This document shows positions 6,572 to 31,578 of a stretch of 64,000 nucleotides of DNA, piece by piece (within the stretch, counting starts at the first letter, position 1; the number at the start of each line of letters is the position of its first letter). The position numbers and the translations under genes were made by a program. Below the pieces are notes generated by a model that was not told where the DNA came from, did no database searches, and worked only from the letters and a program-made list of their open reading frames with translations. Location of the stretch: contig JAQUWU010000017.1 in assembly GCA_028692715.1 (NCBI GenBank), positions 1-64,000 of the forward strand, given 5' to 3'. This DNA comes from Paludibacter sp. (GTDB taxonomy: Bacteria; Bacteroidota; Bacteroidia; Bacteroidales; Paludibacteraceae).

Positions 6572-6629
6572 GTAATCTACATTATTTCAGGCAATTATAT
6601 GTACTTAAAATTTTATTTTCTCTGTGGTT

Positions 6630-6690
6630 CTCTGTGTGATTTTTTTTTGTTACACAGAGTTACACGGAGGAGGCACAGAGTTACACAGAG
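6630..6690. repeat. CACAGAG-type inverted/direct repeat after pglX
   Basis: CTCTGTGT (6630-6637) and ACACAGAG (6652-6659) are inverted around a T-rich loop. Further CACAGAG copies follow at 6674-6680 and 6684-6690, directly before the pglX stop. This type of repeat is common between Bacteroidota genes; function unknown. Confidence 0.5.
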
Positions 6691-6692
6691 GT

Positions 6693-9600
6693 TTACCAAT
6701 CCGCATTCAGGTATTTTACCAACTGATTTGCTTTGAGGACTTCGGCTTTGAGCATTCCTTTTTTCTGAAGGGGTGCTATGTTTTTACCTACGCCATCATC
6801 GAGTATGGGGTTATAGCCTTCGGCAATGAGTTCGTCAATTTTTTTTGTGAAATGTTCAATTTCGCGCAATTGCAGGCGAATGGTTTCTTTCTCGTTTTGT
6901 GCCGCAGCGGTTTCTAGGCCTTGTAAATTTATAAGGCGATAATCTAAGCTTTCTACTCTATCACGTAGGTATTGGGATTTAATCTTGAACAGGCTGTCTC
7001 TGTTCCATTTATAAATAATGATATATGCTTCGAAGCCCTGATTAGCACCGCTGCTTAAATGCCATATAAAAGGTGTTTTGGGTACATTCGGGAAAATATT
7101 GAGCAAATCACCAAGCTGTTTAAAGAAAAACTGTTCAATAAATTCATTTATAGAGCGACCTACCAAATTATCTAACTGCATAAACTGTGCTGAGGTTAAA
7201 CCAATATCCAAACAATATTTTTCTAACCGGTCTAATAAGCGAGGCTCACCAGGAAGACCGACTAAAGGAATTATTCCGTCTTCATCTTTAATTAACAAAG
7301 TGCGAATAGAGTCAGTTAAAAATTCAAGTGTAATTTCCTGTGTCCTACCCTGTGGAAAAACTGTTGATTCTTTGAACCAACACCAAACATTTATAGGATT
7401 AACTTGGCGCCCAATGCAAAAATCCTCTAAGTCATTATTAGATTGATACAAATTGACAAATTCATCAATAATAGTTTTCTTTAATTGAGGATCGATTTCA
7501 TCAACAACTCTCAATGAGTCAAAATAATCAAACAAAATATCTCTGTATTCAACGGAAATATTTATATCGGATTCGATCATTAGTTTAAATTCAGATAGTT
7601 CATTTTGACCAACTGTAAATTCCCCAAGTGATTTGCCTTGTTTTATTTCAACTTGTATTTTATCGTCTTTACTAAGATCATATATATTATAAATCAGCAA
7701 ATTGAGTATTGCATCATTTATCAGCACTAAACTAATCTTAGCATTGTAATGATTAAAGTAAGATTTTATTCTTTCTTGTAATGAGGCTTCTTTGAATGAT
7801 ATTAATGGATTTGCAACAAAATTCATTTCAGTTATGCGAAAAGAACACAGCTGCTTTATAATACTTGTGTTTTGAATTGAAAGAAATGTAACTCGATCTT
7901 CAATAGCTTTATTTGGTATAATATATGGAATTTTTTCTAAATCACCTGTCTGGAAGTTAACCGTTGGATTTATACAATAAAGAAAATAAGATACCAATTT
8001 TGAGTTAAGGAATCCTAAGCAGTATTGTAGATTCGATTCGGTTTTTTTTGGAAAAATTGATTTACCAGCAATTTCAAAAATACAATTTTCAGGTTGATAT
8101 CTTACAGAAAGTCCTTTTGAAGTTGCTCCAGTAAATGATAAGCCTTCATTAAAATAATACTCTTCTGAAGTAACTCGAATTTTCTTATTTGTTTTACGTA
8201 AAATCTTCAGGTTTTTACCATAATCACTCCACTCACAAACTAACCATAAGTTACCATACCATTTTTGATATTTACCTCCTTTGTTCAGTAAAACCCATTT
8301 TGATTTATCAATATCATAGTTTAATGAAATATCACTTTTATTTATTTCCCAAAATGTTCTAAAAAAACGTTCGTTATTACCTCCAGTTTGTATACCATTA
8401 CAAAAATTAAAGTAATCTGAAATAGTACTATTAACTTGAAAAATTTCTATTATTTTGGGCGATTTTATCCAGTATGTAAAAGGTGAATTTTCTATATTTT
8501 TAAAAATATTCTGATTAATATAAAAAATTTGATCTGAATCAATGTTATTAATTGCACCGTTAACTATATTGTCAATGCCAGTAGTTTCAAATGTATTTTT
8601 GTCAAGACTTATAAATATTGAATTTTCTTCTCTTTTTTGTTTATTATAAATATTCAATGCTACATTTACTAAAACAGACTGAAAAAGAGAAAATTCACAA
8701 TTTATAAAAATTTCAATTTTTGAATTGGATAAAATAAATTTTCGAAGGTCTTTAAATGATACAAGGTGCATAAACGTATTTGGCTGAACCATTGAAATAT
8801 ATCCGTTCTCATTTGCCAATTCAAAATTTCGTTTAATAAATACTGAATATAAATCTGCTCCAAATTTATCATTAATTTCAAAGTTGTTTTTAATGAAGAA
8901 TCTTAAGTCTGTACCAAATTGATCACTTTCTAAATATGGTGGATTTGCAAGAACAATATCATACTTTTGAGACAATAACTGCAAAAAAGTTATTGCATCC
9001 TGGGTTTTTGTATTTAAAAATTTTTGATTTTGCTCGAAAGTATTTTGTACAACAGCACTTTGTAAATTTATGAAAAAACTTTTACGGAATTGTTCGTAAT
9101 TATCTACTTCTTGCGTTGAAAAAAGAGTAACGTTATTACTCGAAAATCCGTGCAGTTGTATGCTTAGTTTTTCTTCGAGGCGTATGAGTGAGCCAAACTT
9201 GTAGGCTTGTTGTAGGTCAGTCCAAATATCACGGATAATGGTTTTTTGTTTTTCGTCCATTCCTGTATTGGATTCAAAAATATTCTGTACTTGTTCGTAA
9301 GGTGGCAAATAGAAGTCGGAACTAACCACATTGAAATGGTCGATACGAATGGAGCGTTTACGGCGTTTGGCTTTAATGTACAAGCCAAGCTGTGCTAACT
9401 GAATGGCACGGTCGTCCAAATCTACTCCATGCAGGTTATTTTCAATAATGAGTTTGGCAATCTGGTTTTCGTCGTAGTCGGCACCGTAGTTTTCTATCTG
9501 ATCGAGGTAGAGGTCGTAAAACAAGTCGAACGCATAGAGTAGGAAGTTTCCTGAGCCGGTGGCGGGATCAATGAGTTTTATTTGGTGCAACTTTTTATTA

Positions 9601-10508
9601 ATTGACAATGAGGAATTAGGAATTAGGGGTTTGTCCGTAATTCCTAATTCGTAATTCCTAATTGAATCAGCATTGGCAATTTTGTATTTGTTTTTTATGT
9701 CACTTTCGGGGAACATTTCCAGATAGAGTTTCCCTAAACTGTTGTCCACCAAAAACTTCACTACCCAACGAGGGGTATATACCTGACTTTGAATGCTAAC
9801 TTTGTTGTATTCGGTTTTATCTTTGCTTGCTTTGTGGTCGGCTTTTTTCTGGTTGTTGTAGCTTTCGTAGAGCCAACCTAATACATCGTCGCTTTTCCAA
9901 ATATTTTTTGAATTAGGAATTAGGAATTCAGAATTAGGTGTAATTCCTAATTGCTCATTCGTAATTGAATTAATTACTTGTGCATCGGTTTCTACTTGAT
10001 TGAAAGCGGTAATAATACCGCTGAGCTCAATGGCTGTAGGCAATAAATGGTATGGGTGCGTGGTGCTGAATAAGGGAATTTCGGTAGCAAGAGTGCTGAA
10101 TTGACTTTCCATAAATGCCACCAATCCTTCGGCTTCTTCTACTCGTTGGTCGGGGTTTTGTTCTAACCAAGCCAAGTGAGCAAAAGATCGTCCACCGAGT
10201 GTTTCGCGCTGTGTAATGATTTCGGGAAACAAGGTATGAGCTTCCATTACCTTGAGCGCAGCCAATCGATTAAAGAGTGTGAAAGTAAGTTCTTCTACCA
10301 ACTTTTCGTATGCTTTTTCTACGGTTCCTGTTTCGGAAATAAATACTTCGCGCACGGTTTCTATGCGTTGACGGTCATCTACATATTCGGAAGGGATATT
10401 ATCAATTGGCGTTAATTGAGCTGTGGTGATTCCCATACGACCAAGGCGGTTGCGGAAAGCTTTGTCAATTAACAGGCGGATATGGTCGGAATAGTCGGAT
10501 AGTTTCAT
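6693..10508 (-). CDS. pglX: PglX, BREX type I adenine-specific DNA methyltransferase
   Basis: Modifies host DNA at an N6-adenine of a non-palindromic site so that BREX spares it; also needed for exclusion. Motif I (DPATGSGNF) is at about 312-322 and motif IV (NPPY) at about 519-522, the wide spacing typical of PglX. The long C-terminal half would carry target recognition. The 1271 residues are slightly long for the family. Two in-frame insertions of the AATTAGGAATTA-type repeat explain part of this: about residues 185-200 (NSEFLIPNS) and 282-300 (ELGITDKPLIPNS). Both precede motif I, so the enzyme may still work. The start at 10,508 follows a repeat array. Confidence 0.93.
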   Translation of the reverse strand: MKLSDYSDHIRLLIDKAFRNRLGRMGITTAQLTPIDNIPSEYVDDRQRIETVREVFISETGTVEKAYEKLVEELTFTLFNRLAALKVMEAHTLFPEIITQRETLGGRSFAHLAWLEQNPDQRVEEAEGLVAFMESQFSTLATEIPLFSTTHPYHLLPTAIELSGIITAFNQVETDAQVINSITNEQLGITPNSEFLIPNSKNIWKSDDVLGWLYESYNNQKKADHKASKDKTEYNKVSIQSQVYTPRWVVKFLVDNSLGKLYLEMFPESDIKNKYKIANADSIRNYELGITDKPLIPNSSLSINKKLHQIKLIDPATGSGNFLLYAFDLFYDLYLDQIENYGADYDENQIAKLIIENNLHGVDLDDRAIQLAQLGLYIKAKRRKRSIRIDHFNVVSSDFYLPPYEQVQNIFESNTGMDEKQKTIIRDIWTDLQQAYKFGSLIRLEEKLSIQLHGFSSNNVTLFSTQEVDNYEQFRKSFFINLQSAVVQNTFEQNQKFLNTKTQDAITFLQLLSQKYDIVLANPPYLESDQFGTDLRFFIKNNFEINDKFGADLYSVFIKRNFELANENGYISMVQPNTFMHLVSFKDLRKFILSNSKIEIFINCEFSLFQSVLVNVALNIYNKQKREENSIFISLDKNTFETTGIDNIVNGAINNIDSDQIFYINQNIFKNIENSPFTYWIKSPKIIEIFQVNSTISDYFNFCNGIQTGGNNERFFRTFWEINKSDISLNYDIDKSKWVLLNKGGKYQKWYGNLWLVCEWSDYGKNLKILRKTNKKIRVTSEEYYFNEGLSFTGATSKGLSVRYQPENCIFEIAGKSIFPKKTESNLQYCLGFLNSKLVSYFLYCINPTVNFQTGDLEKIPYIIPNKAIEDRVTFLSIQNTSIIKQLCSFRITEMNFVANPLISFKEASLQERIKSYFNHYNAKISLVLINDAILNLLIYNIYDLSKDDKIQVEIKQGKSLGEFTVGQNELSEFKLMIESDINISVEYRDILFDYFDSLRVVDEIDPQLKKTIIDEFVNLYQSNNDLEDFCIGRQVNPINVWCWFKESTVFPQGRTQEITLEFLTDSIRTLLIKDEDGIIPLVGLPGEPRLLDRLEKYCLDIGLTSAQFMQLDNLVGRSINEFIEQFFFKQLGDLLNIFPNVPKTPFIWHLSSGANQGFEAYIIIYKWNRDSLFKIKSQYLRDRVESLDYRLINLQGLETAAAQNEKETIRLQLREIEHFTKKIDELIAEGYNPILDDGVGKNIAPLQKKGMLKAEVLKANQLVKYLNADW
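9611..9663. repeat. Repeat insertion within pglX, copy 1
   Basis: Inverted copies of the AATTAGGAATTA repeat (AGGAATTAGGAATTAGG left, AATTCCTAATT arms right) face each other around TTTGTCCG inside pglX. The reading frame stays open and encodes a peptide with ELGITDKPLIPNS, just upstream of methyltransferase motif I. Confidence 0.8.
9910..9953. repeat. Repeat insertion within pglX, copy 2
   Basis: A second hairpin-like pair: three tandem AATTAGG/AATTCAG units (9910-9938) face TAATTCCTAATT (9941-9952). It stays in frame and encodes TPNSEFLIPNS in PglX. It is the same family as the intergenic repeats of this locus. Confidence 0.8.
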
Positions 10509-10510
10509 TT

Positions 10511-10612
10511 TTTTTAATTAGGAATTAGGAATTAGGATAATTAGGAATTAGGAATTTTCAATTAGGATAATTAGGAATTAGGAATTTTCAATTAGGAATT
10601 AGGAATTGGAGA
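10511..10612. repeat. Tandem AATTAGG repeat array upstream of pglX
   Basis: About ten AATTAGGA units fill the gap between the four-helix-bundle gene and pglX. It includes an exact 30-bp tandem duplication (10,531-10,560 equals 10,561-10,590). The array encodes the C-terminal PPISNS-stop of the upstream gene and abuts the pglX start codon, so it probably forms the pglX 5' leader. Confidence 0.85.
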
Positions 10613-10982
10613 TTGGGGGTTTAATGTTTAATTTGATTTTCATTGTATTAATGATAGATCCAATAATCCTCAATAATTCCTCACAATCAGACAAGTATGT
10701 AATTGCTTCATCTTGGGTAAGGTAGCCGGTATCTCTTAGTAATCTGAGCCAATATTTTGTTTCTCGTGCCTCCTTGTAAGCGATATTTAGCTTTGCAAAA
10801 AAATCTCTTTCTGATTGTCCACCAATACCTTCCTCTATATTAGCACCAATTGAAGTTCCTGAACGTAAAACTTGCTTTGAAAGGACATATTCCTTTTTAG
10901 TTTCCACAATGGTTTTGTATAGATTTATTATTTTAATAGCAAACCGATAGCTCTTGTCTTGTACTAAATTATTTTCCTTCAT
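10599..10982 (-). CDS. Four-helix-bundle protein (S23/bAvd-like, TIGR02436 type)
   Basis: 127-residue, all-helical protein. It has the family hallmarks GANIEEG near residue 48 and an ARETKYWLRLL segment near 76. The family includes proteins encoded in 23S rRNA intervening sequences and the Avd accessory protein of diversity-generating retroelements; no general function is known. It lies co-directionally between brxC and pglX, flanked on both sides by AATTAGG-type repeats, and is not part of the canonical six-gene type I BREX operon. The C-terminal residues come from the repeat. No reverse transcriptase is nearby, so a DGR role is unlikely. Confidence 0.8.
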   Translation of the reverse strand: MKENNLVQDKSYRFAIKIINLYKTIVETKKEYVLSKQVLRSGTSIGANIEEGIGGQSERDFFAKLNIAYKEARETKYWLRLLRDTGYLTQDEAITYLSDCEELLRIIGSIINTMKIKLNIKPPISNS

Positions 10983-11000
10983 TTTTATGATTTATATGCC

Positions 11001-11027
11001 CTAATTCCTAATTGCCAATTCCTAATT
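11001..11027. repeat. AATTCCTAATT repeat at brxC / four-helix junction
   Basis: Two CTAATTCCTAATT-like units in the 51-nt gap between the brxC stop and the next start codon. Same family as 10,511-10,612 in inverted orientation. Confidence 0.65.
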
Positions 11028-11033
11028 TGTTTT

Positions 11034-14000
11034 TTAAGAGATTTCTATTTCATCATTATCGGAAACGGAAGCGAGTTTTTGTAATTCATGTTTTAGCCAG
11101 GTTTTGTACACTGAGACTTTCATAATCTTAGTCGGAAGACTAGATTTAATTTTTTTTGGTGCAATTGGTGCTGTTGGTGCAGATACAAGTCCTGTTCCTT
11201 TGTTATCGGGATTAGGGTTGGGATTTTCAATTACTACCGGTGGCAGCTCACGTATTAAACCTGCCTGAATAATATCTAAGTCCGTTTTTTTGCTTCCGTA
11301 TAAATCAATGTAGGACAATACTTCGGAATAGGTGAAGCGGCTTTGTTTGTCCTTTACATCATAATCGAGTATAATGCTTGCTTGTGTTCGCTGTGAAGCG
11401 TATTGCACTAAGCCGTTTACGTTGGATAATGCAGCAGTATTTAGCCCTTTGGGAAGTGCATTAATTTCTGTAACTAAGGCTTCTGCATCAAGTTTTAGTT
11501 GGCTGTATTTTTTGGACATCTTTACTACTGCTTCCGAGAAAAGGCGGTGGTATTCGTCTTTAATTTTCTGTGTAGTTTGCTGCAATGCTGTAAAGTTGGT
11601 GACTACATCCTGTGCCAAGAGTTTATTGAAATCAACATTCAGTTGCAGAATGGATTCATTGTTTTTGGCCGCTTTGTTGAGTTCGTCGGAAACAGCCACT
11701 ACAAAGTTTTTCCATTCTTTTACTTTTGGCAAACTGTTGCGAATGAATTTTTCTACTTTCTCAATGGCTTGTATCGAAGCAATAAATACATTTTTAGCTG
11801 TGAGAAATTCCACTGCTCTATCCATATAGTTGGATTCACTTACCGCACCTGTGAAGTCAAGTAAGGTCTCTTTGTGTGGTTCAACAGAACTGAACAGTTT
11901 GTCGAAATCCTTTTCAATGGCTTTGAGGGTTCCCACTTTTTCGGTAAAATGCTTTGCCAAATCACGCACGGCATTTACCAATTCAAAATCGTTGGTGTTG
12001 TAATCAATTTTACGACCAATGTATTTATCTACTTCAATGTCCAAAAGGCATTGTGCCAATTCCTGTTTTTGAACGGCCGAAAGCGATTTGGAGATTTGTT
12101 TGAATGAAGCTTTGCGGAATTCCCTTGCAGCAGAGAACATGGCTACTACGCTGCTATCTTTCCATGAGAAAATATCGTTTCCGTTGTATTTGGCAATGAT
12201 TTTACCGGCACGCAATAAAACAGCCACCGTGGAAATGACCGTTCCCAAAGTATAACCGGTTGGGGGTAGTTCAAGCTCTTTTTCGAGTGTTGCACCGTCC
12301 ACAAAGGTATTACGCACTTTGTAAATGACTTCTTCCGCCACTTTTAGATTGTTACCAATAAAATTACCCTGTGCATCGAAGAATTGAAAATCAGTACCAT
12401 GAAAATATTGTTGCAATCGTGCATTGTTTGTTTCTTTCACCACACTCAGTGCCACTGTTTCGGTCAATTGAGCCGAAAGGCGTTTGCTGTACACATTCTG
12501 AATGATATGGCGTTGCTGGGTTTGGATAGTGCCTTGCCAACTGTTGGTGTCTAATTGTAGTGTGTTGTACAAATAAACAGCCGTTGCATTAAAAAGCGAT
12601 TCTTCGATTAATGCCGTAATGCGAATTTGTTTTTCGGTTTTAGCGGTAGAAAAACTGAGCATTATTTTTCCTTCGTCCGAATTCGGGTTGTTGTATTTTT
12701 GCTCCAAATAACCAATGCGTTCCACTTCGTCAATCAATCTATCCAATTCGCGGAACGAGCGATTGTCGGGAACGAGCCATATCAGGTCTTTATCGTTTTG
12801 GTGCTGAACTTTTAGCGTTTCAATATCGGTATTCCTGTCATCACTTATGTTGTAAAGACTTTTGAGTTTTACTTTCAGGTATTTCAATGCCGGATTGGTG
12901 AGTTCGTCATCATTATCGGTGGTAATGTAGAAATCGTATAACAGACTGCTATCAGCAATTTTGGCAATGGATTTGATAAAAGCTGCTGTTTTGTAAGCTG
13001 TTACTACTTGTTTCTTTTTTACGAAACCCTGTACGGTAAAACCGTTCATTTCGTCCAACAAACGTTGTTCGATATCCGAAGTTATGCGGTAGGTTTTGTT
13101 GGTGTCCAATAAAACCTTGGCTTCGGTGAGTTTATCCAATGCTTTGGAAATCTCGTCCTGCACTTTGTGGAACTGCTCGGGGTCGCTTGTAAATGACTTT
13201 ACAATGTTTGGTAAGGTAGTAGGTGCAACTTCGGCTTCGGAAAGGAAGTTGATTGTTTCCAATAATTTACGACCCGAAATAGAAGAATGTTCTTCTTTCA
13301 GGATACGTTCTGCATTGTCGTAACGACTCACCAAGCGAACGTTGGGAGTTGGTTGAGCTTGTTTACAAATTTGCCAACCTGTAGTAGTTTCAAAAATTGG
13401 TTTGTTCTGTAATTCCTTAGTCAGTAAATCGTAGGTAGTAATAATCATACCACGGGCAGCTACTTTGGTAGAAGCATAGCCTTTGGTGCCAAAGAGGAAA
13501 TTTTGCAACAAGTCGAACTGATACTTGTAGAAAGGGTAATAAGTAGCATAATTATCGGCAGAATCTGTTTTGGAAATACCTGCACCAATAAGCGAAGCAT
13601 GATCGGCAATTTTACCCGAATGTTTTTGATAATGTTCTTTTAGCTGCGCTATTCCTGCATCTGTTTTTTTCAATAATCTGTTGCGAATAATCACATCCAC
13701 TTCGGTAGATTCCAAATGCACTTTTGTTTTAAAGCGGTCGGTTACTTTGGTTAATTGTGCTTTGCTCACATTGGAGTTATTGATCACATCGTCCAATTTC
13801 TCCTGTGCAATGGCAATGGTCCACACTTTACCGCCCAATGACGAAAGCGCTTCACTAAGGCCTTCAAGGTCTAAAAGCGTGAATTTTTGTTGGTTGATAG
13901 CTTCGCTTGCTTCGTCGAAAAGGAAAACCACTTTCTCGTTTTTCTCTATCTGGAAATAGTTTGTTAGTTGTTCTTTCAGACTATTAGCACTAAACTGGTC

Positions 14001-14672
14001 AATTTCCCGACGAATGGTTTCGAGCATACTTTTGTAATCGTCCTCGGTATTACCCTTTTGTAAATAAATATTTTTGACCACTTTGGCATAATCTAGCAAG
14101 CGGTTTTTTATATCCGACCAATTGAGGCCAATATTATTAAAAACAAAATCATTAATGTTGGCTTTATTTTCATTTATCATCAACTGATATAGAAAATAAC
14201 CATGTTCGTTTTGGGGTAGCTCCAATGTTTTCAGAAAGTTACGAAACATAGTGTACGAAAGCCCTTTGGAGGTATCCTGCTTGGCAATATCCAAAAATAC
14301 AACTCTGGTATTTTCACTGTCTAATCTGCGGATATCGTTTTTTACCAATGCTTCATCGTCAATGCCTGTAAAACGTTGAATAATACGGTCGCGTGCAGGA
14401 GTACCGGCAATAATTCTATTACTAATCAGGTAACCTAACATTTTTCCGAAATAGGATTTTCCCGAACCGTAGAAGCCCGAAATCCAAACACCCGATTCCT
14501 TGATAGAGGAGGTGAAAACGCTGGCAAAATTGGAATACTCTTTTGCTAAGCCATCGGTAACAATATAATTTTCAATTTCGGATTGAATTTCCGATTCCGA
14601 AATATCTTCTAAGTCGATTACATTTTTAATATCATCAGCAAGGTTGATTGTAAGCAGGTCTTTTATATACAT
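11034..14672 (-). CDS. brxC: BrxC, BREX P-loop ATPase
   Basis: Large AAA+-like ATPase of BREX, probably the motor of the complex. The Walker A motif GFYGSGKS is at 66-73 and the Walker B VVFLFDEAS at 248-256. The 1212 residues match the family. The rest is helical, with no membrane segments. It follows brxB with a 63-nt gap of degenerate AATTACGAATTA repeats, and is followed by the four-helix-bundle gene. The start ATG at 14,672 is just before the conserved N-terminal LTINLADDI region. Confidence 0.93.
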   Translation of the reverse strand: MYIKDLLTINLADDIKNVIDLEDISESEIQSEIENYIVTDGLAKEYSNFASVFTSSIKESGVWISGFYGSGKSYFGKMLGYLISNRIIAGTPARDRIIQRFTGIDDEALVKNDIRRLDSENTRVVFLDIAKQDTSKGLSYTMFRNFLKTLELPQNEHGYFLYQLMINENKANINDFVFNNIGLNWSDIKNRLLDYAKVVKNIYLQKGNTEDDYKSMLETIRREIDQFSANSLKEQLTNYFQIEKNEKVVFLFDEASEAINQQKFTLLDLEGLSEALSSLGGKVWTIAIAQEKLDDVINNSNVSKAQLTKVTDRFKTKVHLESTEVDVIIRNRLLKKTDAGIAQLKEHYQKHSGKIADHASLIGAGISKTDSADNYATYYPFYKYQFDLLQNFLFGTKGYASTKVAARGMIITTYDLLTKELQNKPIFETTTGWQICKQAQPTPNVRLVSRYDNAERILKEEHSSISGRKLLETINFLSEAEVAPTTLPNIVKSFTSDPEQFHKVQDEISKALDKLTEAKVLLDTNKTYRITSDIEQRLLDEMNGFTVQGFVKKKQVVTAYKTAAFIKSIAKIADSSLLYDFYITTDNDDELTNPALKYLKVKLKSLYNISDDRNTDIETLKVQHQNDKDLIWLVPDNRSFRELDRLIDEVERIGYLEQKYNNPNSDEGKIMLSFSTAKTEKQIRITALIEESLFNATAVYLYNTLQLDTNSWQGTIQTQQRHIIQNVYSKRLSAQLTETVALSVVKETNNARLQQYFHGTDFQFFDAQGNFIGNNLKVAEEVIYKVRNTFVDGATLEKELELPPTGYTLGTVISTVAVLLRAGKIIAKYNGNDIFSWKDSSVVAMFSAAREFRKASFKQISKSLSAVQKQELAQCLLDIEVDKYIGRKIDYNTNDFELVNAVRDLAKHFTEKVGTLKAIEKDFDKLFSSVEPHKETLLDFTGAVSESNYMDRAVEFLTAKNVFIASIQAIEKVEKFIRNSLPKVKEWKNFVVAVSDELNKAAKNNESILQLNVDFNKLLAQDVVTNFTALQQTTQKIKDEYHRLFSEAVVKMSKKYSQLKLDAEALVTEINALPKGLNTAALSNVNGLVQYASQRTQASIILDYDVKDKQSRFTYSEVLSYIDLYGSKKTDLDIIQAGLIRELPPVVIENPNPNPDNKGTGLVSAPTAPIAPKKIKSSLPTKIMKVSVYKTWLKHELQKLASVSDNDEIEIS

Positions 14673-14679
14673 TTTTAAT

Positions 14680-14748
14680 ACAATTACGAATTAACGATTA
14701 TGAATTACGAAACAAGAATTATGAATTACCGAAAATCAAGAATTATGA
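14680..14748. repeat. Degenerate AATTAnGAATTA repeat at brxB-brxC junction
   Basis: Several AATTACGAATTA and GAATTATGAATTA units fill the junction and run into the end of brxB, encoding its last residues (NDHNS-stop). It is more diverged than the pglX copies. Confidence 0.6.
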
Positions 14749-15299
14749 TCGTTGATAATCATACAACGATATTTTGAAGCAGGACGCTTAGATAAAAAAA
14801 GTAATTTATCACCGTCGGTAGTGGCAGGATACAGCACAATCAACGGTAATGAAGACTTCATCACCACTTCATGCTCCATGATATGAATGTTATCAATGTG
14901 ACTACCATATAATGCACCTGTATTTATCAGAACAGGTATTTTGTTGTTTTTAAAACTGTTTGCTATTACATCAATAATGTGCTGAAACAAATCTCCTTCA
15001 TCGTCGGTGGATTTAAAAGCCTGAGAAACGGAACCCTGAAGTAATTCAAAAGTTTCGATCAAAAGTTCTTTGTTTGCTTGCACGAAATTTACCAATAACT
15101 CATTCAAATCAATGATTTGATACGTTTCAGTATCAAGCATAAAGATCATTTTATCAATAAACTCAGCTTCCTGCTTCGGGTTGCAGACAATTAAAATGGA
15201 ATTTCCACCGTTGGCGTTTAGTCGGATTTCAGATTGTTTATCTGATTCGACCAAACGTTTGGTTTGATTAATAATAATTTCAGGATTTTGTGAGCTCAT
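14736..15299 (-). CDS. brxB: BrxB, DUF1788 BREX protein
   Basis: Small conserved BREX component (DUF1788), 187 residues; biochemical role unknown, required for defence in type I systems. Visible family features are the ILIVCNP strand near residue 35, INTGALYGS near 125 and the PLIVLYPATTDGDKLLFL segment near 152. The gene overlaps the end of brxA by 20 nt, suggesting coupled translation. The C-terminus ends in repeat-derived sequence (HNS). Confidence 0.88.
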   Translation of the reverse strand: MSSQNPEIIINQTKRLVESDKQSEIRLNANGGNSILIVCNPKQEAEFIDKMIFMLDTETYQIIDLNELLVNFVQANKELLIETFELLQGSVSQAFKSTDDEGDLFQHIIDVIANSFKNNKIPVLINTGALYGSHIDNIHIMEHEVVMKSSLPLIVLYPATTDGDKLLFLSKRPASKYRCMIINDHNS

Positions 15300-16038
15300 C
15301 GTAAATGTTTTGGTAAGAAATTATAGGTTCAATTTTCATTTTTTCTCCATTGAAATTCAGGTTGTAGAATTTTGAGAATTTCTTTTGCATGATTCTCTCT
15401 AAAAATGACGTTTTTTCTAAAAAACAATACTTCAACCAAGGGCTTTCAAGGATATTTGGTTTTTGCTCAATAGTAAGCAACCAATAAATAAAAATTACAA
15501 ACATTTTATCGTTCAGATAGGTGTGTGCAATGGTTTTATTTAGTGAACCTTCCATTAAATTGAATTTTTTGAGCAATGTCAGGTATTTTGAAGCTGTAAT
15601 TTCAATGGTAGAATCAGCCCATTTTTGAAGATCAGGTTCGGATTGTTTCAAGTCCACCAAACAGGCTGTTGCCTCAGTTGTTTTAATGCCTACTCTGCCA
15701 CTGTACAATGCCGGAAAGTAAACATTCTCGTTGAGGTAGCTCAGCAAATCATTGTTGTTTGAAGCGTTTAGAAAAATCAGAAATAAGCTATCGTTGGAAA
15801 TAGATTCACTTGAAATCATAGTTCTGAATATATGCTCAAATTCTTTGTTTTTGAAGTTTAATAGTGTTCCTGTTATTGCCTTTTCGAAGCGTTGAACTGA
15901 CTTGTCTGTTTTGATAGCGGTGTATGAACGGTGTCCGCCATCTTGATTGAGAGCATTAATGCTTTCATTCATAAACAGTTTGATTAGATTCCAATCCGAC
16001 AAACCGCCTAATATATTTAAATCAGTATTTATTATCAT
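15280..16038 (-). CDS. brxA: BrxA, DUF1819 BREX protein
   Basis: First gene of the BREX operon; BrxA (DUF1819) is a small helical DNA-binding protein in characterised type I systems. The 252 residues fit the family. The N-terminal NILGGLSDWNLIKLFM and the following region about the small domain resemble other BrxA proteins. It starts at ATG 16,038. Upstream lies a candidate promoter with two palindromes, but no BrxR/WYL-type regulator gene is visible next to it. Confidence 0.85.
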   Translation of the reverse strand: MIINTDLNILGGLSDWNLIKLFMNESINALNQDGGHRSYTAIKTDKSVQRFEKAITGTLLNFKNKEFEHIFRTMISSESISNDSLFLIFLNASNNNDLLSYLNENVYFPALYSGRVGIKTTEATACLVDLKQSEPDLQKWADSTIEITASKYLTLLKKFNLMEGSLNKTIAHTYLNDKMFVIFIYWLLTIEQKPNILESPWLKYCFLEKTSFLERIMQKKFSKFYNLNFNGEKMKIEPIISYQNIYDELTKS

Positions 16039-20952: not shown

Positions 20953-22194
20953 TTAAAATTTCATTAATTTTTTAGTCAATTTTTCAATACTATCATCTTC
21001 AAAACCACTAAAATAGTTTTGAGTAGTTTTCAAATCTGCGTGTCCTAGCTGTTCACTTACTAACTCCATACTGGCACCTGAACGAATAGCATTTGTACTA
21101 AATGAATGCCTAGCGTAGTAGGTTGATATATTTTCATCAATCCCAACTTTTACAGCTAACTTCTTCAAACCCTGATTAACTGAACGTGTGAAGTTCTTGA
21201 TTGCTTTTTGCTTCTCTTCTGCGCTCATTTCTTTAGTAATTATACTGAATATAAGCGTGTTTGCGCCTTTATTTTCGCTGCCGTATCGTTTTATCACATC
21301 GTGTGCAAAAGGTGTCAAATATACGGAAATTTCTGTTTGTTCAGAAGTGGTGTTCTCAGTTTTTTTTCTAAAAAATTTCAAGCGGTCACCATCGATTTGA
21401 CCATAAGTGAGGTTGGCAATGTCTTTGAAGTTCATGCCACTGCAATTGTATGAGAAAAAGAAAAATGCTTTTGCTCGAAGCTGTTCTTCTGAACCAGTTG
21501 CTTTAAATAATTTTTTGAGTTCGTCTGGCTTGAGGGTTTTCTTGACTTTCTTAACACTAGAAATCTTGTATTTGCTCTTTTCTTTGCCAAATGGATAAAT
21601 CTTACTGCTGATATCTCCCTTTGAAATTGAGCTATTGAAAATGGCTCTTAATGCACGAACATACATACTTATGGTAGTAGTGCTTTTGCCATTGGTTTTC
21701 ATGTATTCCTCGTACTTCTGTAGCCATTCTGTTGTTATTTCAGAGAATAGAAGTTTATCGACTTTTTTATCAGCTTTTTTCTCAAGGAATTTTGAAATAG
21801 AATTAAGGCTGTTTTGGTAGTTGTCAGCATTACCCAACCGCCCCAGGCTTTTGTTTTCCTCAATAGCTACTTTGAATGCATCAATAACATCTGCTTTGTT
21901 GCGAGGTTCTGAAAACATTTCTTTTTCAAATTTTTCGAATGAAAATGGAATAATAGATTCCGCAATTTCTAAAGCTTTTGATAGGAGTTTGTTTAATTCT
22001 ATTGATAAATCAACGAATTTGCCTTTGGGTTTCTTTGATCTAGCAAGCTCAAACTCTTCAGAGGTTAATTTGAAGTTAGTACTATACATTTTTGTTACTC
22101 TTAGGGTAGGGGATAGTACTCTCAGTTTTACGATATAAATGTCTGAAATCCTTTTAATTCGCTGGTCTAGATAAAGGGTAATTGAGCAGTCCAT
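20953..22194 (-). CDS. Tyrosine site-specific integrase of the element
   Basis: 413 residues: N-terminal arm-binding part, SAM-like core-binding domain (about 110-210), and C-terminal catalytic domain. Visible catalytic residues are Arg362 in YYARHS, His385 in LGHAD and the nucleophile Tyr394 in QNYF. The usual first Arg region reads SYNCSGMNFKDIANLT without Arg, as in many Bacteroidota transposon integrases. The gene starts about 165 nt from the tRNA-Pro 3' fragment, the typical position next to an attachment site. It most likely catalyses insertion into tRNA-Pro. Confidence 0.92.
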   Translation of the reverse strand: MDCSITLYLDQRIKRISDIYIVKLRVLSPTLRVTKMYSTNFKLTSEEFELARSKKPKGKFVDLSIELNKLLSKALEIAESIIPFSFEKFEKEMFSEPRNKADVIDAFKVAIEENKSLGRLGNADNYQNSLNSISKFLEKKADKKVDKLLFSEITTEWLQKYEEYMKTNGKSTTTISMYVRALRAIFNSSISKGDISSKIYPFGKEKSKYKISSVKKVKKTLKPDELKKLFKATGSEEQLRAKAFFFFSYNCSGMNFKDIANLTYGQIDGDRLKFFRKKTENTTSEQTEISVYLTPFAHDVIKRYGSENKGANTLIFSIITKEMSAEEKQKAIKNFTRSVNQGLKKLAVKVGIDENISTYYARHSFSTNAIRSGASMELVSEQLGHADLKTTQNYFSGFEDDSIEKLTKKLMKF

Positions 22195-22446: not shown

Positions 22447-22495
22447 TTTTAGGTGGATACACAATTTTTTCAAATTTCAATATAATCCATAAAAT

Positions 22496-22533
22496 AAAGC
22501 CGTATCACATAATGTTGATACGGCTTTATTTTT
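22496..22533. terminator. Bidirectional terminator
   Basis: A perfect 12-bp stem (AAAGCCGTATCA, 22,496-22,507, with 22,516-22,527) and an 8-nt loop, followed by ATTTTT. The A-rich left flank also gives T's on the minus strand. It ends minus-strand transcription from the remnant gene or the UDG-like gene. Confidence 0.75.
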
Positions 22534-22553
22534 AAGATTTTGTAGTATAATAA

Positions 22554-22661: not shown

Positions 22662-23300
22662 TTATCCTTTCAGAATCTCTTTAATTGAATCCTTATATTT
22701 TCCCCATTCCTTATTCTTCAAATGATACGACACTTTATACCGTGGACTCTTTCCCCGATAAACAGGAATCAACGGACGTCCCAATTTGTTTTTATCTGCC
22801 GGAATAGGAATTTCTATTTTACATTCATAAATATCAGGAGCAATGTGTTTTGAAGTTTCTTTATCTCCCAATACTTCAAGTAATAATTGAGAAGTAAGTA
22901 ATACCGGAATTTTCGGGTCAAAAACCGACAGTTCTTCTTTTAGGCGTTCAATCCAAAACTCTTCAGCAACCTTTTTCCATATTTTGTTTACTCCTGTTTC
23001 TTCTTTAAAATAATTTCTGCAAAGATTCTGTGTATATACTTGTTCCCAATTTAAATCAATTTCTTTTAACTGCTGTAAATGCATTTTTCTAAATTGCACA
23101 AAACCTCTATCCTCACTGCCATGCGAAAAAGCATAATCAAATAGAATATTTTTACTCGTATTCGTTGGGTCACAACCCAGATATATTGCTTTTACAGCTT
23201 CTATACCTCCGGGACAATAGGCTAGAGGTAGCTTTTCTGTAACTACTATTTGGTCACCATAAGTTTCGCTAAGTTGGCTTATCAATTGAATATCATTCAT
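22662..23300 (-). CDS. Uracil-DNA-glycosylase-fold protein
   Basis: 212-residue protein that looks like a divergent member of the UDG superfamily. A motif-1-like AIYLGCDPTN is at about 38-47, and a late segment RYKVSYHLKN near 187-196 could hold the motif-2 His. The catalytic Asp of family 1 UDG is not clear, so activity is uncertain. Co-directional with, and 55 nt downstream of, the exonuclease-RecQ-UvrD gene, so the two are probably one operon. The context suggests nucleic-acid defence or repair. Confidence 0.6.
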   Translation of the reverse strand: MNDIQLISQLSETYGDQIVVTEKLPLAYCPGGIEAVKAIYLGCDPTNTSKNILFDYAFSHGSEDRGFVQFRKMHLQQLKEIDLNWEQVYTQNLCRNYFKEETGVNKIWKKVAEEFWIERLKEELSVFDPKIPVLLTSQLLLEVLGDKETSKHIAPDIYECKIEIPIPADKNKLGRPLIPVYRGKSPRYKVSYHLKNKEWGKYKDSIKEILKG

Positions 23301-23355
23301 AGTATTTCATTTAATTTTTATGTTATTTAACGATTGTTTTAATTGTTTTGATTTA

Positions 23356-26300
23356 TCAGGATTGCTTCTCAAAGTATAATTCAGGTAAAATAATCTTTAC
23401 TTCTTGCTCATCCCCTTCTTTGAGCCAGTAAACTATAAAGTTCACTTTTGCACTTTTCAATTTATAATCACTGGTTTTAATATTTTCCAGTTGATTAATG
23501 AATTGCTTTGAGAATTTCAAAACTGATTGTCCCTTTGAGTTCAAACATTCATCATTATTCAAAGTCAAAATATCTCCACTCATAAGCAGAGAAACCAAAT
23601 ATTGTTTGTATAAGAAATAGTCGAGCCAAATATCTTTGTATGTCAACTGCATTGCAAATTCGCTTGGCTGTATATATTCATTTCTATCTTCAATGTATTG
23701 CAGATTTTCTATTGAATGTAGATTATCAAGAAGACTTGAGTTCAAATGAATAGTCAGGTTTTGTTTTGCTCTTGTCATGGCAACATATAATTGTCGTTTA
23801 GCCTCGTCTGTTTCTGTATTAAAATTATCAAGCATCAGAAAAACATTGTCAAATTCCTTCCCTTTTGCTTTATGAATTGTTGAAACAAAAATTATTTCTC
23901 CGTTTTCGTTGAAAAAATCTTCTAATTTCGATTCACGAATAAAAACATCTAAATCGGATTTGTATTTCTTTTTTGGATTGGTTACTTCAAAATCTCTTAT
24001 TATATTATTACATATTTCCAGTTTATTGCTGTTATGGAACTTGTTCATTAAATCTCGTTTGGCAGTTTCCCAAATGTCATCACTGATTATAAAAACATCA
24101 TTATCCAGGTTCAAAAGGCTTAAGAAATATCTTACTTCCACAAGATTATACAAATTAAAACCGTCATTTGTCTGAATCAGTTTTGCTTGCATATTATTTC
24201 TCAATAGCAATCCTGTTATTTGTAATGCTTCATCATTTGTTTTTGTCAGCACGCAGGTAGTTCCTGTAAGTTCTGCTGCAAGTATTTCATTTACAAGCGG
24301 AATAATTAGATGACTACTCTGATATCGAACCAGTTTTATTTTACCACTGTCGGTTTGATTAGCAAAAATCGGAGTATCTTTCAATCTATGTCGAACACGT
24401 TTAATAAACTGATTGCTGAATTCAACAAGGTTGCTCTTGCTTCTGTAGTTTTCAAGTAGCTCATGTTTTACTGCTTTGTTTATCCCAATAAATTGTTCCA
24501 GGTATTTTGAACTTGCTCCTCTGAATTCAAAAATATTCTGGTCGTCATCTCCCACAGCAATCACTCTCATCTCTTCATTTTGCTCCATCATAGCATTTAT
24601 CAGGTTGAATTCATCTTCATCCATATCTTGCGCTTCGTCAATCACCAACACTGTTTTTGTAATCCGGCTTGCTTCAACTTCTTTATTTTTGATTTTCTCA
24701 ATTGTCTTTTTCAGAATCGCATCAGACTTTTCCAAACTCCCAACCTTACCTAGTAAGTCAAAACAATAGGCGTGAAATGTTTTTATTTCAATGAAGTTTG
24801 CAGCATTTCCAATGAGTTTAAATAAACGCTTTTTAAATTCTGTTACTGCTGCTCTTGAAAATGTCAGCATAAGCAATTGTTCATGTTTGACATCTTCCAT
24901 TAACAGAAGTGAAGCCAGTTTATGAACTAAAACTCTTGTTTTTCCACTGCCGGGACCAGCTGCAACAACAATGTACTTCGATTCATTGTCGTTAATAATT
25001 TTCAGCTGCGTGGGTGATAGTTCTCCAAAAAGTTGCCGGAATTTTGCGGGAGTCATTCTTAACCTGAGATCGTCTGCTTTGCTTCCCGGAAAGTATTTAT
25101 TCAGAAAAGAATTATAGTTCAACTGAAAATAATCTTCCACAAACTGGAGAGCATCCTTATAATCGCTAATCATTTTCTTAGCATATTCGCCGACAATGTG
25201 AATCTGTTGAACCTTGTTTTCATAAAATTGATTCAGTTTTGCATAATCATTTTTAGTATACCTTTTAGAATTATCCGGTTCTAGACGCTCAATTGTCATT
25301 CGATTATACACAACTAGAAAACCACCTTCAATTTTAATTGCTTCAATTCTTGAAAGATAAAACAGGGAGTCTTCAATATCTTCAATGCTAATGCTTAGTT
25401 TAAAGAGATTCTGACTGTTTTCATAAGCAGTTTTCAATTCGTGAACGGAAAACTCAACCAATACTTCTTCTTTTCCAGTATCTTCTTCAGAAACCTTCAG
25501 ATTACTTTTTTCAAATAGAAATTCAACAATGAATTGAGCTAGCTCATGACGTTTCTCTAATTTCTCTTTCAGGAAATCTTTTGGTTGCAAACAAAGCACG
25601 ACAAAATGATTCTTTGAAAATTCAAGGTTCTGTCGTTTGATCCAATTCTTGATGGCCCAAAAGTTTAGAATGGTTTTTATCTTGTTTGTGTTTACATCAA
25701 CACAACCCTTCAACTCAGCTTCCTCGTTCAGTTCTTTAATATGAAATGTCTTTTCTTGTTCTTCAAACTGCGGAAGTAAAAAGTTCTCAATCTTACTATA
25801 TGTTTCAACAATGTTGAGTGAATGATTTTTGTTTTCTCCCCTCTTAATGAACGCTGTCAAATCTTTTGCATCAGCTAAAATGTTTTCCTCACGAAGAAGA
25901 TTCACGATATTGATTACCTCCTCCTTTACAATTCCCAAATGGTCACTGATATAATCAATTCTCGATTCTCCAGAATTATCATTGCTTAGCTTGCGGCTTT
26001 TACTTGACAAGAGTTTTTTGATAATCCGGATTCCTTTTTCTTTCTGTTTCTCCTGAAACCTTTCCGAAGCATTTATCTTGTCGATAGCTTCCTGAGCATT
26101 TTTACAGAGAATACTGTTAGCAAAAATCCGTGGCACGTTTTGCCCACGCTTCAAATAGCCAGCATCCTCCAATGCTGCAATAGCTGTTGTTACTCTTGTT
26201 TCAATCTCAACAACATTATCATCCCAACCGGCTTTTCGTGCAATTTCCAATGCAGAATTTGAAACTGACGAACGGAATCTGGTAATTTCCTTTATAGCTT

Positions 26301-28182
26301 TCCAAATCTGCTGTATTTCTTTGATGGATAATTTAGTTTGATTCAACAAAATAAAATGCTTACCGAGATCCTCTTCATTAAACAACACAAAACAATCGGC
26401 TACTATATTTTCATCTCTTCCTGCTCTACCCGCTTCCTGAATATAGTTTTCGAGCGAATCAGATATTTCATAGTGAATTACCATACCCACGTCTTTTTTA
26501 TCTACGCCCATTCCAAAGGCCGAAGTGGCCACCATAATCTGAACTTCACCTTCTATAAATGCATTTTGGTTAGCCGTTTTTTCCTTTACATCCATTTTGC
26601 CATGGTATGGCTTAGCATTAAACCCATCTTTAGTTAACCTTTCTGCAAGCAAATAGGCTTTTCGGGTTCTAGAAACATAAATAATAGTCGGACAATTTTT
26701 TTCCTCAATCAAATCTCTGGCTGTCTGATATTTTTCTTCTTCGTCTCTTTTTTCAAAAACCTTATACTGAAGGTTTGTCCTTGATGTTTTTGATGTGAAA
26801 AGTTCAAGATCTAATGAAAGTTTTTCCCTGAAATAGTTCAGAATATCCTCAATGACTTTTTGCTTGGCTGTAGCCGTGAAACACGAAACAGGAATTCCAT
26901 CTTGCAAATTTTTCTTTTCCTGAATACCCTTAATAAAATCACCAATATATAAATAGTCAACTCTGAAATCCTGCCCCCATGAAGAAAAGCAGTGAGCTTC
27001 ATCAATAACAAAGCGAACAATTTTCCGGCTCAATAACAGTCGTTCAATTGTTTTAGAACGCAAAGACTCCGGAGAAATATACAGTAAAGAGGCCGAACCA
27101 TCTTCAACCCGTTCGAATGATTTAGCTCTTTCAATAGGGTCAAGTAAACCATTTATCGTAACTGCTTCGGTTATTCCGTTTTTTTCAAGATTGTCAACCT
27201 GATCTTTCATTAACGATTGTAAAGGAGAAATTACAATTGTCAATCCTTTTGAACTTTCACCACTCATCAAAGCCGGAACCTGAAAAGTAATGGATTTACC
27301 TCCACCTGTAGGAAATACGGCTAGTAATGATTTATTATCGACAGCTGCCTTAACAGCTTCTTCCTGTAAGGGTTCACCGCCATAAGTCCGGTATGAATCA
27401 AAACCGAAAAAATGTTTTAATCCTTTGTGTACGTCTAATGCATTATTACAATAGGCACACCCGCTTACGCAAGGTTTGTTACGCAACCGAAACATGATTC
27501 GTTCCACTTCGGGATAATTCTTAAGAACCCAGGGTGGCGTAATGGAATGAATTTTCTTATAAAGAATAAATGAATGTATAAGCGATAAACAATAAGCAAG
27601 CTCCACGGGATACTCCGAAATCAGTTGAGTGAGATCAACCTGTTCACAAATTTCAGTTGAGAATTGTTGACGTATCAGTTTCTCAGGTTCAGTGTTTGCG
27701 CTTGTATAGGAGATAAAGCGAAAAAAGGATTGAAACTCTTTCCGGTCTTTCAATAACAAATAGAAAATTTGTTGCAATTTTTCATCTGTTTGCTTAAAGG
27801 CGGCCATTTCATCGTAAAACAAATCACGTGCTTTGATGGCATCATTTAACGGATTGTTCATTTCTTCCGTTTGTAGTTTATCGTCCTTCAATAATGCATG
27901 ATAGGGTTTGGTAGGAAATAGCAGAGGGGAAAAGTATAAAGTATCAATGATATTTACTGCATTAATTCCCGCAATATTAAGCGCATTACCAATATATTTT
28001 ATATCGTGGTTAAAAATATTATGTCCACATATAAATTTTGTTCCGTTGACAAATTGAACGAACTCAACAACCGAATTTTTATGAAACGAACTTCCATCAC
28101 CCTTGACACTACCTATGTCAAGAATCTTACGACTTTTTGGTTCAATCTCGGTATCGATAAATGCAATAGTTTTCATATTCAT
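23356..28182 (-). CDS. DEDD exonuclease-RecQ helicase-UvrD helicase fusion protein
   Basis: 1608-residue multidomain protein. Residues 1-130 look like a DEDD 3'-5' exonuclease (Asp10/Glu12 in FIDTEI, Asp60 in NIFNHD, Asp114/Asp120 in NDAIKARD). A CxxxCxxC cluster (about 238-245) may bind zinc. A RecQ SF2 core follows: PTGGGKS near 289-295, DEAH near 390, GRAGRDE near 583-589. After a winged-helix-like middle, a UvrD/Rep-type SF1 helicase begins near 1040: GPGSGKT near 1075, DEAQD near 1180, GDDDQNIFEFRGA near 1205-1217, TIHKAKGKEFD near 1435, YVAMTRAK near 1466-1473. It probably unwinds and degrades DNA; target unknown. Confidence 0.88.
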   Translation of the reverse strand: MNMKTIAFIDTEIEPKSRKILDIGSVKGDGSSFHKNSVVEFVQFVNGTKFICGHNIFNHDIKYIGNALNIAGINAVNIIDTLYFSPLLFPTKPYHALLKDDKLQTEEMNNPLNDAIKARDLFYDEMAAFKQTDEKLQQIFYLLLKDRKEFQSFFRFISYTSANTEPEKLIRQQFSTEICEQVDLTQLISEYPVELAYCLSLIHSFILYKKIHSITPPWVLKNYPEVERIMFRLRNKPCVSGCAYCNNALDVHKGLKHFFGFDSYRTYGGEPLQEEAVKAAVDNKSLLAVFPTGGGKSITFQVPALMSGESSKGLTIVISPLQSLMKDQVDNLEKNGITEAVTINGLLDPIERAKSFERVEDGSASLLYISPESLRSKTIERLLLSRKIVRFVIDEAHCFSSWGQDFRVDYLYIGDFIKGIQEKKNLQDGIPVSCFTATAKQKVIEDILNYFREKLSLDLELFTSKTSRTNLQYKVFEKRDEEEKYQTARDLIEEKNCPTIIYVSRTRKAYLLAERLTKDGFNAKPYHGKMDVKEKTANQNAFIEGEVQIMVATSAFGMGVDKKDVGMVIHYEISDSLENYIQEAGRAGRDENIVADCFVLFNEEDLGKHFILLNQTKLSIKEIQQIWKAIKEITRFRSSVSNSALEIARKAGWDDNVVEIETRVTTAIAALEDAGYLKRGQNVPRIFANSILCKNAQEAIDKINASERFQEKQKEKGIRIIKKLLSSKSRKLSNDNSGESRIDYISDHLGIVKEEVINIVNLLREENILADAKDLTAFIKRGENKNHSLNIVETYSKIENFLLPQFEEQEKTFHIKELNEEAELKGCVDVNTNKIKTILNFWAIKNWIKRQNLEFSKNHFVVLCLQPKDFLKEKLEKRHELAQFIVEFLFEKSNLKVSEEDTGKEEVLVEFSVHELKTAYENSQNLFKLSISIEDIEDSLFYLSRIEAIKIEGGFLVVYNRMTIERLEPDNSKRYTKNDYAKLNQFYENKVQQIHIVGEYAKKMISDYKDALQFVEDYFQLNYNSFLNKYFPGSKADDLRLRMTPAKFRQLFGELSPTQLKIINDNESKYIVVAAGPGSGKTRVLVHKLASLLLMEDVKHEQLLMLTFSRAAVTEFKKRLFKLIGNAANFIEIKTFHAYCFDLLGKVGSLEKSDAILKKTIEKIKNKEVEASRITKTVLVIDEAQDMDEDEFNLINAMMEQNEEMRVIAVGDDDQNIFEFRGASSKYLEQFIGINKAVKHELLENYRSKSNLVEFSNQFIKRVRHRLKDTPIFANQTDSGKIKLVRYQSSHLIIPLVNEILAAELTGTTCVLTKTNDEALQITGLLLRNNMQAKLIQTNDGFNLYNLVEVRYFLSLLNLDNDVFIISDDIWETAKRDLMNKFHNSNKLEICNNIIRDFEVTNPKKKYKSDLDVFIRESKLEDFFNENGEIIFVSTIHKAKGKEFDNVFLMLDNFNTETDEAKRQLYVAMTRAKQNLTIHLNSSLLDNLHSIENLQYIEDRNEYIQPSEFAMQLTYKDIWLDYFLYKQYLVSLLMSGDILTLNNDECLNSKGQSVLKFSKQFINQLENIKTSDYKLKSAKVNFIVYWLKEGDEQEVKIILPELYFEKQS

Positions 28183-28278: not shown

Positions 28279-29764
<1,486 letters not shown>

Positions 29765-31099: not shown

Positions 31100-31578
31100 C
31101 TATAAAACCAGCTTCCCTTCAAATGCCTTTTTCAATATACTCTGCTTCAATGTTTCAGCCTGCAACAAGCTTTGGCTAATGGTTTCTGCTATATTATCAC
31201 AAACGGTAAGTTTGCTTTCAAGTTCGTCGACAATGAGTTGTTGTTCCATTAATATGGGAACTGGGATTTCAATTTTTCAATTTCTCGTTGATAGTGAGGC
31301 GTATTAAGTATTAATTCAAAGTAAGCAGGATTAATAACACTTTCTTTCACTCTAATTCTATAAACTTTATCAGAATTTATTAACTTTGGTCTTGTTGATT
31401 TTACCATACAACATACACCTGTTCTAATTCTTGGTCCTGCTCGAGTTATTAAAATATCACCAACTTTCAATTCATGTTGTTCTCTTGGTTTTAGATCTTT
31501 AGGTAGAATTTTATTTTCAAGAAAATTGAACTTGCCGATTTGATCACGGGCTATTTGTTCAGGATTTTGATTGGGCAT
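31100..31578 (-). pseudogene. hsdS: hsdS, type I specificity subunit, truncated and frameshifted
   Basis: The upper fragment (31,578-31,249) covers part of a target-recognition domain (VGDILITRAGPRIRTG, then NPAYFELILNT). The lower fragment, in another frame down to TAG at 31,100, encodes the C-terminal conserved region with EIPVPILMEQQLIVDELE and ends LKKAFEGKLVL. The linker normally between them, with its GxxxxNI-like stretch, appears deleted together with a frame change. The first TRD and the normal start are missing. Half-length compared with intact HsdS (about 400 residues). With hsdM also broken, this type I system is not functional. Confidence 0.75.

What the first reader, a model, noticed from the sequence alone, without database searches (positions are those of the whole stretch)
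22662..28182. Possible undescribed defence or repair module: exonuclease-RecQ-UvrD fusion with a UDG-fold partner
One 1608-residue chain joins a DEDD exonuclease, a complete RecQ helicase core with an upstream Cys cluster, and a complete UvrD-type helicase, all with intact motifs. A UDG-superfamily protein follows in the same direction, 55 nt downstream. They lie in an accessory block with RM remnants, beside a tRNA insertion hotspot. Two opposed helicases and a nuclease in one chain resemble RecBCD-like logic; the UDG-like protein could mark modified phage bases. I cannot verify if this pair has been reported.
Basis: partly seen in the sequence, partly recalled or inferred. Interest (0 to 1): 0.75.

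Follow-up and report, generated by a model that had tools for sequence, protein, structure and literature searches.

The report
Mobile three-engine DNA helicase-nuclease gene
A very large bacterial protein that joins a DNA-trimming enzyme to two DNA-unwinding motors is real and is carried as a wandering single gene by scattered bacteria of several phyla, probably to process or destroy invading DNA, while the small gene beside it looks like a chance neighbour and not a partner.

Summary
The 1608-residue fusion (23356-28182, minus) is real and intact. It joins a DEDD exonuclease, a RecQ core and a PcrA/UvrD-type helicase; the catalytic residues checked are invariant wherever covered in 28 family members from four phyla. 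The gene is patchy: 15 of 395 genomes of the phylum, own included, and 6 of 48 in its genus. Comparison with a housekeeping RecQ suggests horizontal spread. It stands alone, with different neighbours in nearly every locus.

The "UDG partner" claim fails. The 212-aa gene was found in 3 genomes; both genes occur in 1 of 20 genomes with a fusion match. Its UDG fold is not established: no family match, a useless model, only a LGxDP resemblance. There is no tRNA in the window.

The setting is a defence island with a BREX locus, unmentioned in the finding, and type I RM remnants. Best reading: a mobile, self-sufficient exo-helicase, probably anti-mobile-element defence, otherwise accessory repair. 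RecBCD-like logic is unlikely, since both motors belong to 3'-5' families. Function is untested.

The parts
23356..28182 (-). fused exonuclease-RecQ-UvrD protein, 1608 aa
27793..28182 (-). DEDD exonuclease domain (about aa 1-130): D10, E12, D60, D114; N109 (S in 2 rows) where DEDDh enzymes have His
   Evidence: profile-profile match to DEDD exonucleases over aa 7-97; weak PDB profile matches
27448..27471 (-). Cys cluster C238/C242/C245 just before the RecQ core
   Evidence: in 25 of 28 rows
26263..27420 (-). RecQ helicase core (about aa 255-640)
25027..26262 (-). linker aa 641-1052, weak winged-helix resemblance only
23683..25026 (-). PcrA/UvrD-type SF1 helicase core (about aa 1053-1500)
22662..23300 (-).
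22484..22539 (.). inverted repeat (24-nt arms) after the 212-aa gene, possible transcript end; the scan lists no terminator-like site between the two genes
28279..29764 (-). hsdM split into two overlapping frames (remnant)
31249..31578 (-). truncated HsdS fragment whose first residues look like an HsdR start (the HsdR likeness is recalled)
225..16038 (-). BREX locus: brxA, brxB, brxC, pglX, abiEi, abiEii, pglZ, brxL (the full type 1 gene set as recalled)
   Evidence: for BrxA and a sub-cut-off BrxB match
20953..22194 (-). tyrosine recombinase between the BREX side and the two genes

Best explanation
The 1608-aa protein is a self-sufficient, horizontally spread DNA unwinding and trimming enzyme. 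Shown by sequence: an intact DEDD exonuclease site, a complete RecQ motor and a complete PcrA/UvrD motor in one chain, kept together across four phyla, encoded as a lone gene at unrelated sites. Inferred: the two motors (both from 3'-5' families) open DNA at ends, gaps, flaps or forks, and the exonuclease trims the exposed 3' strand, as in WRN, with the second motor clearing proteins or extending the unwinding. Inferred, less sure: its use is defence against invading DNA, acting with or after restriction or BREX in the same island. The 212-aa neighbour is a passenger of the island, not a subunit.
For: Invariant catalytic residues. DEDD identity by profile. RecQ and WRN as PDB relatives of the second domain, PcrA/UvrD/Rep of the third. 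Patchy: 15 of 395 genomes, 6 of 48 in the genus (N-terminal query). Mobile: fusion against best housekeeping-RecQ identity is 83 vs 41% (partial match) for G034, 80 vs 53 for G253, but 51 vs 73 for same-order G351; the distant G034 copy (83%) is no less similar than the two full-length copies of the same genus (80 and 79%). Neighbours change. Defence setting: BREX and RM remnants here; methylases or type IV restriction enzymes near L046 and L054, type I RM at L015. PADLOC at 1e-20: 90 models hit among 117 neighbour proteins of 14 loci, against 11 among 104 proteins of 8 control regions.
Against: No phenotype is known. Many loci have ordinary neighbours: beta-lactamase fold, RibD_C, GSDH, DUF2231, Kelch, fimbrillin, sensors, and 8 of the 10 neighbours had no PADLOC match. 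PADLOC models overlap, so 90 vs 11 is not a protein count, and the control hits also include defence names (SoFic, IetA, CARF). Matches to DpdF, PsyrT and GajB cover shared helicase cores. RecQ identities may mix paralogues, and the tree keeps the window with two rows of its own genus (100/99). Repair is equally compatible with the anatomy.
Confidence: 0.5

Rival explanations
1. An accessory DNA repair enzyme, a bacterial analogue of WRN with an added UvrD motor, that rescues forks or resects ends in the host and is gained and lost like other accessory repair genes.
For: Exonuclease plus RecQ is the WRN layout (one search lists WRN among the RecQ relatives); many loci lack defence neighbours (8 of 10 proteins).
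Against: Patchiness and cross-class similarity; own genome has other RecQ-like genes and all 14 other carriers searched have RecQ matches outside the fusion.
Confidence: 0.28
2. A gene that serves mobile elements themselves, helping plasmid or element replication, recombination or transfer.
For: Copies covering at least 80% of the query on 7 plasmid records; in Aliarcobacter it sits beside parA, with one hypothetical gene and then a T4SS DNA-binding-domain gene on the other side; two cyanobacterial records are typed conjugative.
Against: Several copies on long contigs without element genes among the neighbours named; no copy covering 80% among 50,697 phage records and none found by the viral-contig scan.
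Confidence: 0.13
3. One reading: the small UDG-like protein makes abasic sites in modified phage DNA and the fusion degrades the product.
For: Same direction, 55 nt apart, no terminator-like site listed between; UDG-superfamily glycosylases such as Brig1 do act in defence (PMC11078745, passages read).
Against: Adjacent in this locus only: 0 of 19 other fusion loci, none in 4 more loci of the genus, of which 2 show the downstream side, no match in any plasmid record. Both present in 1 of 20 genomes with a fusion match. The other two genomes with the small gene gave no full-length fusion (G664, 75% complete; G172). UDG fold unproven. In the Brig1 paper RecBCD, RecQ, RecJ and RecA did not affect immunity.
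Confidence: 0.05

Closest known systems
WRN (Werner syndrome exonuclease-helicase)
   Same: N-terminal DEDD-type 3'-5' exonuclease followed by a RecQ core in one chain (layout of WRN recalled; PDB relatives)
   Different: A second, PcrA/UvrD-type motor is fused at the C end; scattered bacterial distribution; Asn (rarely Ser) in the third exonuclease motif
Bacterial RecQ (TIGR00614 / TIGR01389)
   Same: RecQ core above the subfamily cut-off (277.6 vs 219.8 bits)
   Different: Below the RecQ equivalog cut-off (317.4 vs 640.2); extra exonuclease and SF1 helicase domains
PcrA/UvrD/Rep helicases
   Same: SF1A motifs; best PDB match PcrA 1.4e-69
   Different: Far below the PcrA, UvrD and Rep equivalog cut-offs; part of a fusion
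Defence helicases DpdF, PsyrT, GajB
   Same: Shared helicase cores, strong PADLOC profile matches
   Different: Only the core matches; DpdF cut-off not reached (212 vs 550 bits); no GajA, PsyrA or other Dpd gene among the listed matches of the neighbours scanned (some PADLOC lists are capped at 25)
Brig1 / Brig3 defence glycosylases (for the 212-aa protein)
   Same: Supposed UDG-like fold and a defence-island setting
   Different: No homology shown by the tests here, which did not include a Brig sequence; Brig1 alone gave immunity (PMC11078745, passages)

Membership tests
RecQ family helicases (subfamily level) | RecQ core above the curated subfamily cut-off | tested here: met
   TIGR00614 277.6 vs 219.8 bits
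RecQ proper (equivalog) | whole-protein equivalog cut-off | tested here: not met
   TIGR01389 317.4 vs 640.2 bits
DEDD exonucleases | four acidic residues D, E, D, D in register | tested here: met
   D10, E12, D60, D114 invariant in 26 of 26; profile match 92.5% over aa 7-97, which does not reach D114
DEDDh / DEDDy subgroups | His or Tyr in the third motif | tested here: not met
   position 109, five before D114, is N in 25 and S in 2 of 27 rows; the choice of position rests on motif spacing, recalled
UvrD/PcrA SF1A helicases | conserved SF1A motifs | tested here: met
DpdF (7-deazaguanine DNA system) | NF041063 cut-off | tested here: not met
   212 vs 550 bits
Gabija | GajB next to a GajA OLD-type nuclease | tested here: not met
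   no GajA among the listed matches of the 8 neighbours scanned; GajB matches cover the motor only
RecBCD/AddAB | PD-(D/E)XK nuclease domain and motors of opposite polarity | tested here: not met
   no such domain listed in the chain; closest motors RecQ and PcrA, RecD far weaker at 4e-11; polarity is from family knowledge, not measured
UDG superfamily (212-aa protein) | match to a UDG family model or fold | tested here: inconclusive
   no Pfam, NCBIfam or PADLOC match at 0.01; PDB matches are to P450s and one YopN/Phi3T_93 entry, no UDG; model pLDDT 39; hhalign to 9 UDGs 2.7% over 19 columns at LGxDP, controls 0.2 and 0.7%; only 3 sequences, so the test is weak
BREX | the fusion is a BREX component | tested here: not met
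   BREX genes end at 16038, with a recombinase and others between; no occurrence of RecQ, exonuclease or glycosylase in the main text of PMC12839542 (term search)
Anti-phage defence system | protects cells against phage | not testable with these tools
   no experiment possible

The most novel reading that the evidence does not exclude
The fused protein is an unnamed kind of single-gene defence enzyme, a DEDD exonuclease with two 3'-5' motors of different superfamilies in one chain, spread by horizontal transfer across at least four phyla and not modelled as such in the defence library tried (PADLOC-DB 2.0.0).
Probability: 0.35. Interest if true: 0.7.

Novelty: new variant of a known kind. Interest (0 to 1): 0.45.

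Why it matters
If defensive, it would be a one-gene system that can be moved and tested at once, with three separable catalytic sites, and would show how RecQ and UvrD motors cooperate with a proofreading-type exonuclease in one chain. RefSeq names such proteins only 'RecQ family ATP-dependent DNA helicase', which hides the architecture. The negative result on the pair matters too: it removes a likely false partner before bench work.

Tried and rejected
UDG-like protein: family scans, profile against PDB, plasmids, phages, viral contigs (28, 49, 88), 395 genomes of the phylum (10), 295 of the class (48), 296 around G172 (92), 48 of the genus (100), genome contigs (11): only own, L011/G664 (78%; taken as the same organism, Paludibacter sp. 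UBA6032, because the contig lengths are equal) and a 118-aa partial relative in G172. The two-sequence AlphaFold2 model was unusable (pLDDT 39.4) and its fold search gave nothing (best E 6.9). A single-sequence model of the exonuclease was also poor (43.3) and was not searched.

Two-gene module: rejected on adjacency and co-occurrence. tRNA hotspot: rejected. RecBCD logic: rejected as membership, unlikely as mechanism. Phage origin of the fusion: the 15 phage records listed of 80 match only the RecQ part, and none of the 80 covers 80%.

Literature; the listings (several capped: 20 of 66, 12 of 343, 15 of 73, 12 of 117, 10 of 11 papers shown) held no paper whose title or abstract start describes this fusion; the library is open-licence PMC only. 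Seen: passages of PMC11078745, PMC10273834 and PMC12839542; abstract and outline of PMC13160076; all others as search listings.

Weaknesses of counts and controls: only 2 candidates per genome were scored, so 15 of 395 is a lower bound in principle. Of the 5 further genus genomes with a match, full-length frames were seen in 2 (L116, L118); 2 run off a contig end (L117, L120) and G680 was not fetched further. Of 13 control regions fetched 8 were used for PADLOC, to stay within the residue limit, and one ORF of them was left out. Of 20 DEDD loci my script extracted 10 for the profile; of 20 UDG loci 9 were extracted. Two family rows (L063, L065) lack part or all of the N-terminus through the start codon chosen or annotated. 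The tree has long branches and 3 open forks of 16. L012 and L013 share some neighbours, so loci are not all independent.
Full report
Observation. Both frames exist as stated, on the minus strand: 23356-28182 (1608 aa) and 22662-23300 (212 aa), with 55 nt between. Pfam sees DEAD, Helicase_C, UvrD-helicase and UvrD_C domains in the long chain, so the RecQ and UvrD parts are not chance. None of 26 members has a Pfam match in the exonuclease region, but D10, E12, D60 and D114 are invariant in 26 of 26, and a profile of the domain aligns to DEDD exonucleases of related genomes at 92.5% probability (E 5e-7), against 0.13-0.29% in four control comparisons; the aligned part, residues 7-97, holds motifs one and two, not D114. 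PDB profile hits are weak; the best are of the same kind (exodeoxyribonuclease III, DnaQ, T7 polymerase, DEDDh), mixed with a few unrelated ones (E 0.0035-0.85). The third motif has Asn (25 of 27) or Ser (2 of 27) where DEDDh enzymes have His (position judged by spacing).

Family. I gathered 28 members, the window included: 15 from genomes of the phylum and 13 from plasmid records of Bacteroidota, Campylobacterota, Pseudomonadota and Cyanobacteriota. The nine helicase residues checked are identical in 28 of 28. RecQ is the most conserved part, the last 108 residues the least. The linker (641-1052) shows only weak winged-helix resemblance. The best PDB relatives are 1oyw (E. coli RecQ, recalled) for the RecQ part, with WRN lower, and PcrA/UvrD/Rep for the SF1 part, with GajB, RecB and RecD progressively weaker.

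Distribution. A full-length fusion is in 15 of 395 genomes of the phylum, own included (2 candidates scored per genome), and an N-terminal match in 6 of 48 genomes of the genus. Against the best housekeeping-type RecQ match, the fusion is more similar than expected in distant hosts and less in a near one: G034 83% vs 41% (partial match), G253 80 vs 53, G174 76 vs 58, G291 76 vs 40, but same-order G351 51 vs 73. RecQ paralogues may blur some of these. In the tree the window groups with two rows of its genus (100/99), while G351 groups with a Bacteroides plasmid and other host ranks are mixed; some branches are long. So it seems to spread horizontally and to be kept at times within a genus.

Context. 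Neighbours differ in nearly every locus. Here the gene lies between type I RM remnants (hsdM in two frames, HsdS fragment, IS200-type transposase) and, beyond a tyrosine recombinase, a BREX locus with embedded AbiE genes. Elsewhere some loci have restriction genes: L046 two type II methylases, L054 GmrSD and another type IV enzyme, L015 a type I system by annotation. Others do not (8 of 10 proteins without a match). In bulk, 90 PADLOC models were hit among 117 neighbours of 14 loci against 11 among 104 proteins of 8 control regions at 1e-20; models overlap and the control hits include some defence names, so this is only indicative. No tRNA is present in the window or at 60000-86453 of the contig.

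The small gene. It has no match to Pfam, NCBIfam or PADLOC at 0.01. Its link to UDGs is a short motif, LGCDP against LGQDP, which hhalign aligns at 2.7% probability over 19 columns (controls 0.2 and 0.7%). Its model is unusable. It was found in three genomes only: own, L011/G664 (78%) and, as a 118-aa partial relative, G172. In L011 it lies near a methylase-specificity fusion and a PIN gene, in G172 between a Schlafen-type helicase and a GmrSD enzyme, so it may itself belong to defence islands. But of the loci seen it is adjacent to the fusion only here: 0 of 19 other fusion loci, none in 4 more loci of the genus, 2 of which show the downstream side, and no plasmid record. Of 20 genomes with a fusion match (15 full-length, 5 more by N-terminal match, 2 of these seen full-length) one, the window's own, has it. 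The two could still be co-transcribed here: no terminator-like site is listed between them and an inverted repeat follows.

Mechanism. From family knowledge RecQ and UvrD/PcrA both move 3'-5' and DEDD exonucleases digest 3'-5'. In RecBCD the motors have opposite polarity on opposite strands, so they travel together; two 3'-5' motors would act in series on one strand or move apart. WRN is the better model: unwind, then trim the 3' end, with the SF1 motor perhaps clearing proteins. This is inferred and unmeasured. Use in defence rests on mobility, patchiness and setting; repair is the main rival.

Novelty. RefSeq calls such proteins RecQ family helicases. The paper searches (listings, several capped) showed no description of this fusion in the held library. 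I call it a new variant of known helicase-nuclease fusions.

Noticed in passing
window 225-16038 (-): BREX locus with brxA, brxB, brxC, pglX, pglZ, brxL and embedded abiEi/abiEii genes.
   Followed up: partly
window 29779-31032: An IS200/Y1-type transposase (30221-30682) has one GTCCCTACGGGAC palindrome on one side and three on the other, plus three ACGGACTAAAGTCCGTT-like repeats, a REP-transposase-like layout.
   Followed up: no
window 31249-31578 (-): Short frame whose start resembles HsdR (recalled) and whose rest matches HsdS, as if an internal deletion joined two parts of a type I RM operon.
   Followed up: partly
window 19183-20943 (-): 586-aa protein without a Pfam, NCBIfam or PADLOC match at 0.01, directly after the tyrosine recombinase.
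   Followed up: no
window 31827-32156 (-): 109-aa frame matching a PHROG called protease (E 7e-30).
   Followed up: no
G000:C27:28376-29572 (locus L004): Another large RecQ-like frame (1149 aa open frame) in the same genome.
   Followed up: no
L060:5460-9747 (G172): Partial relative of the 212-aa protein lies between a Schlafen-group-3 helicase and a GmrSD restriction enzyme.
   Followed up: partly
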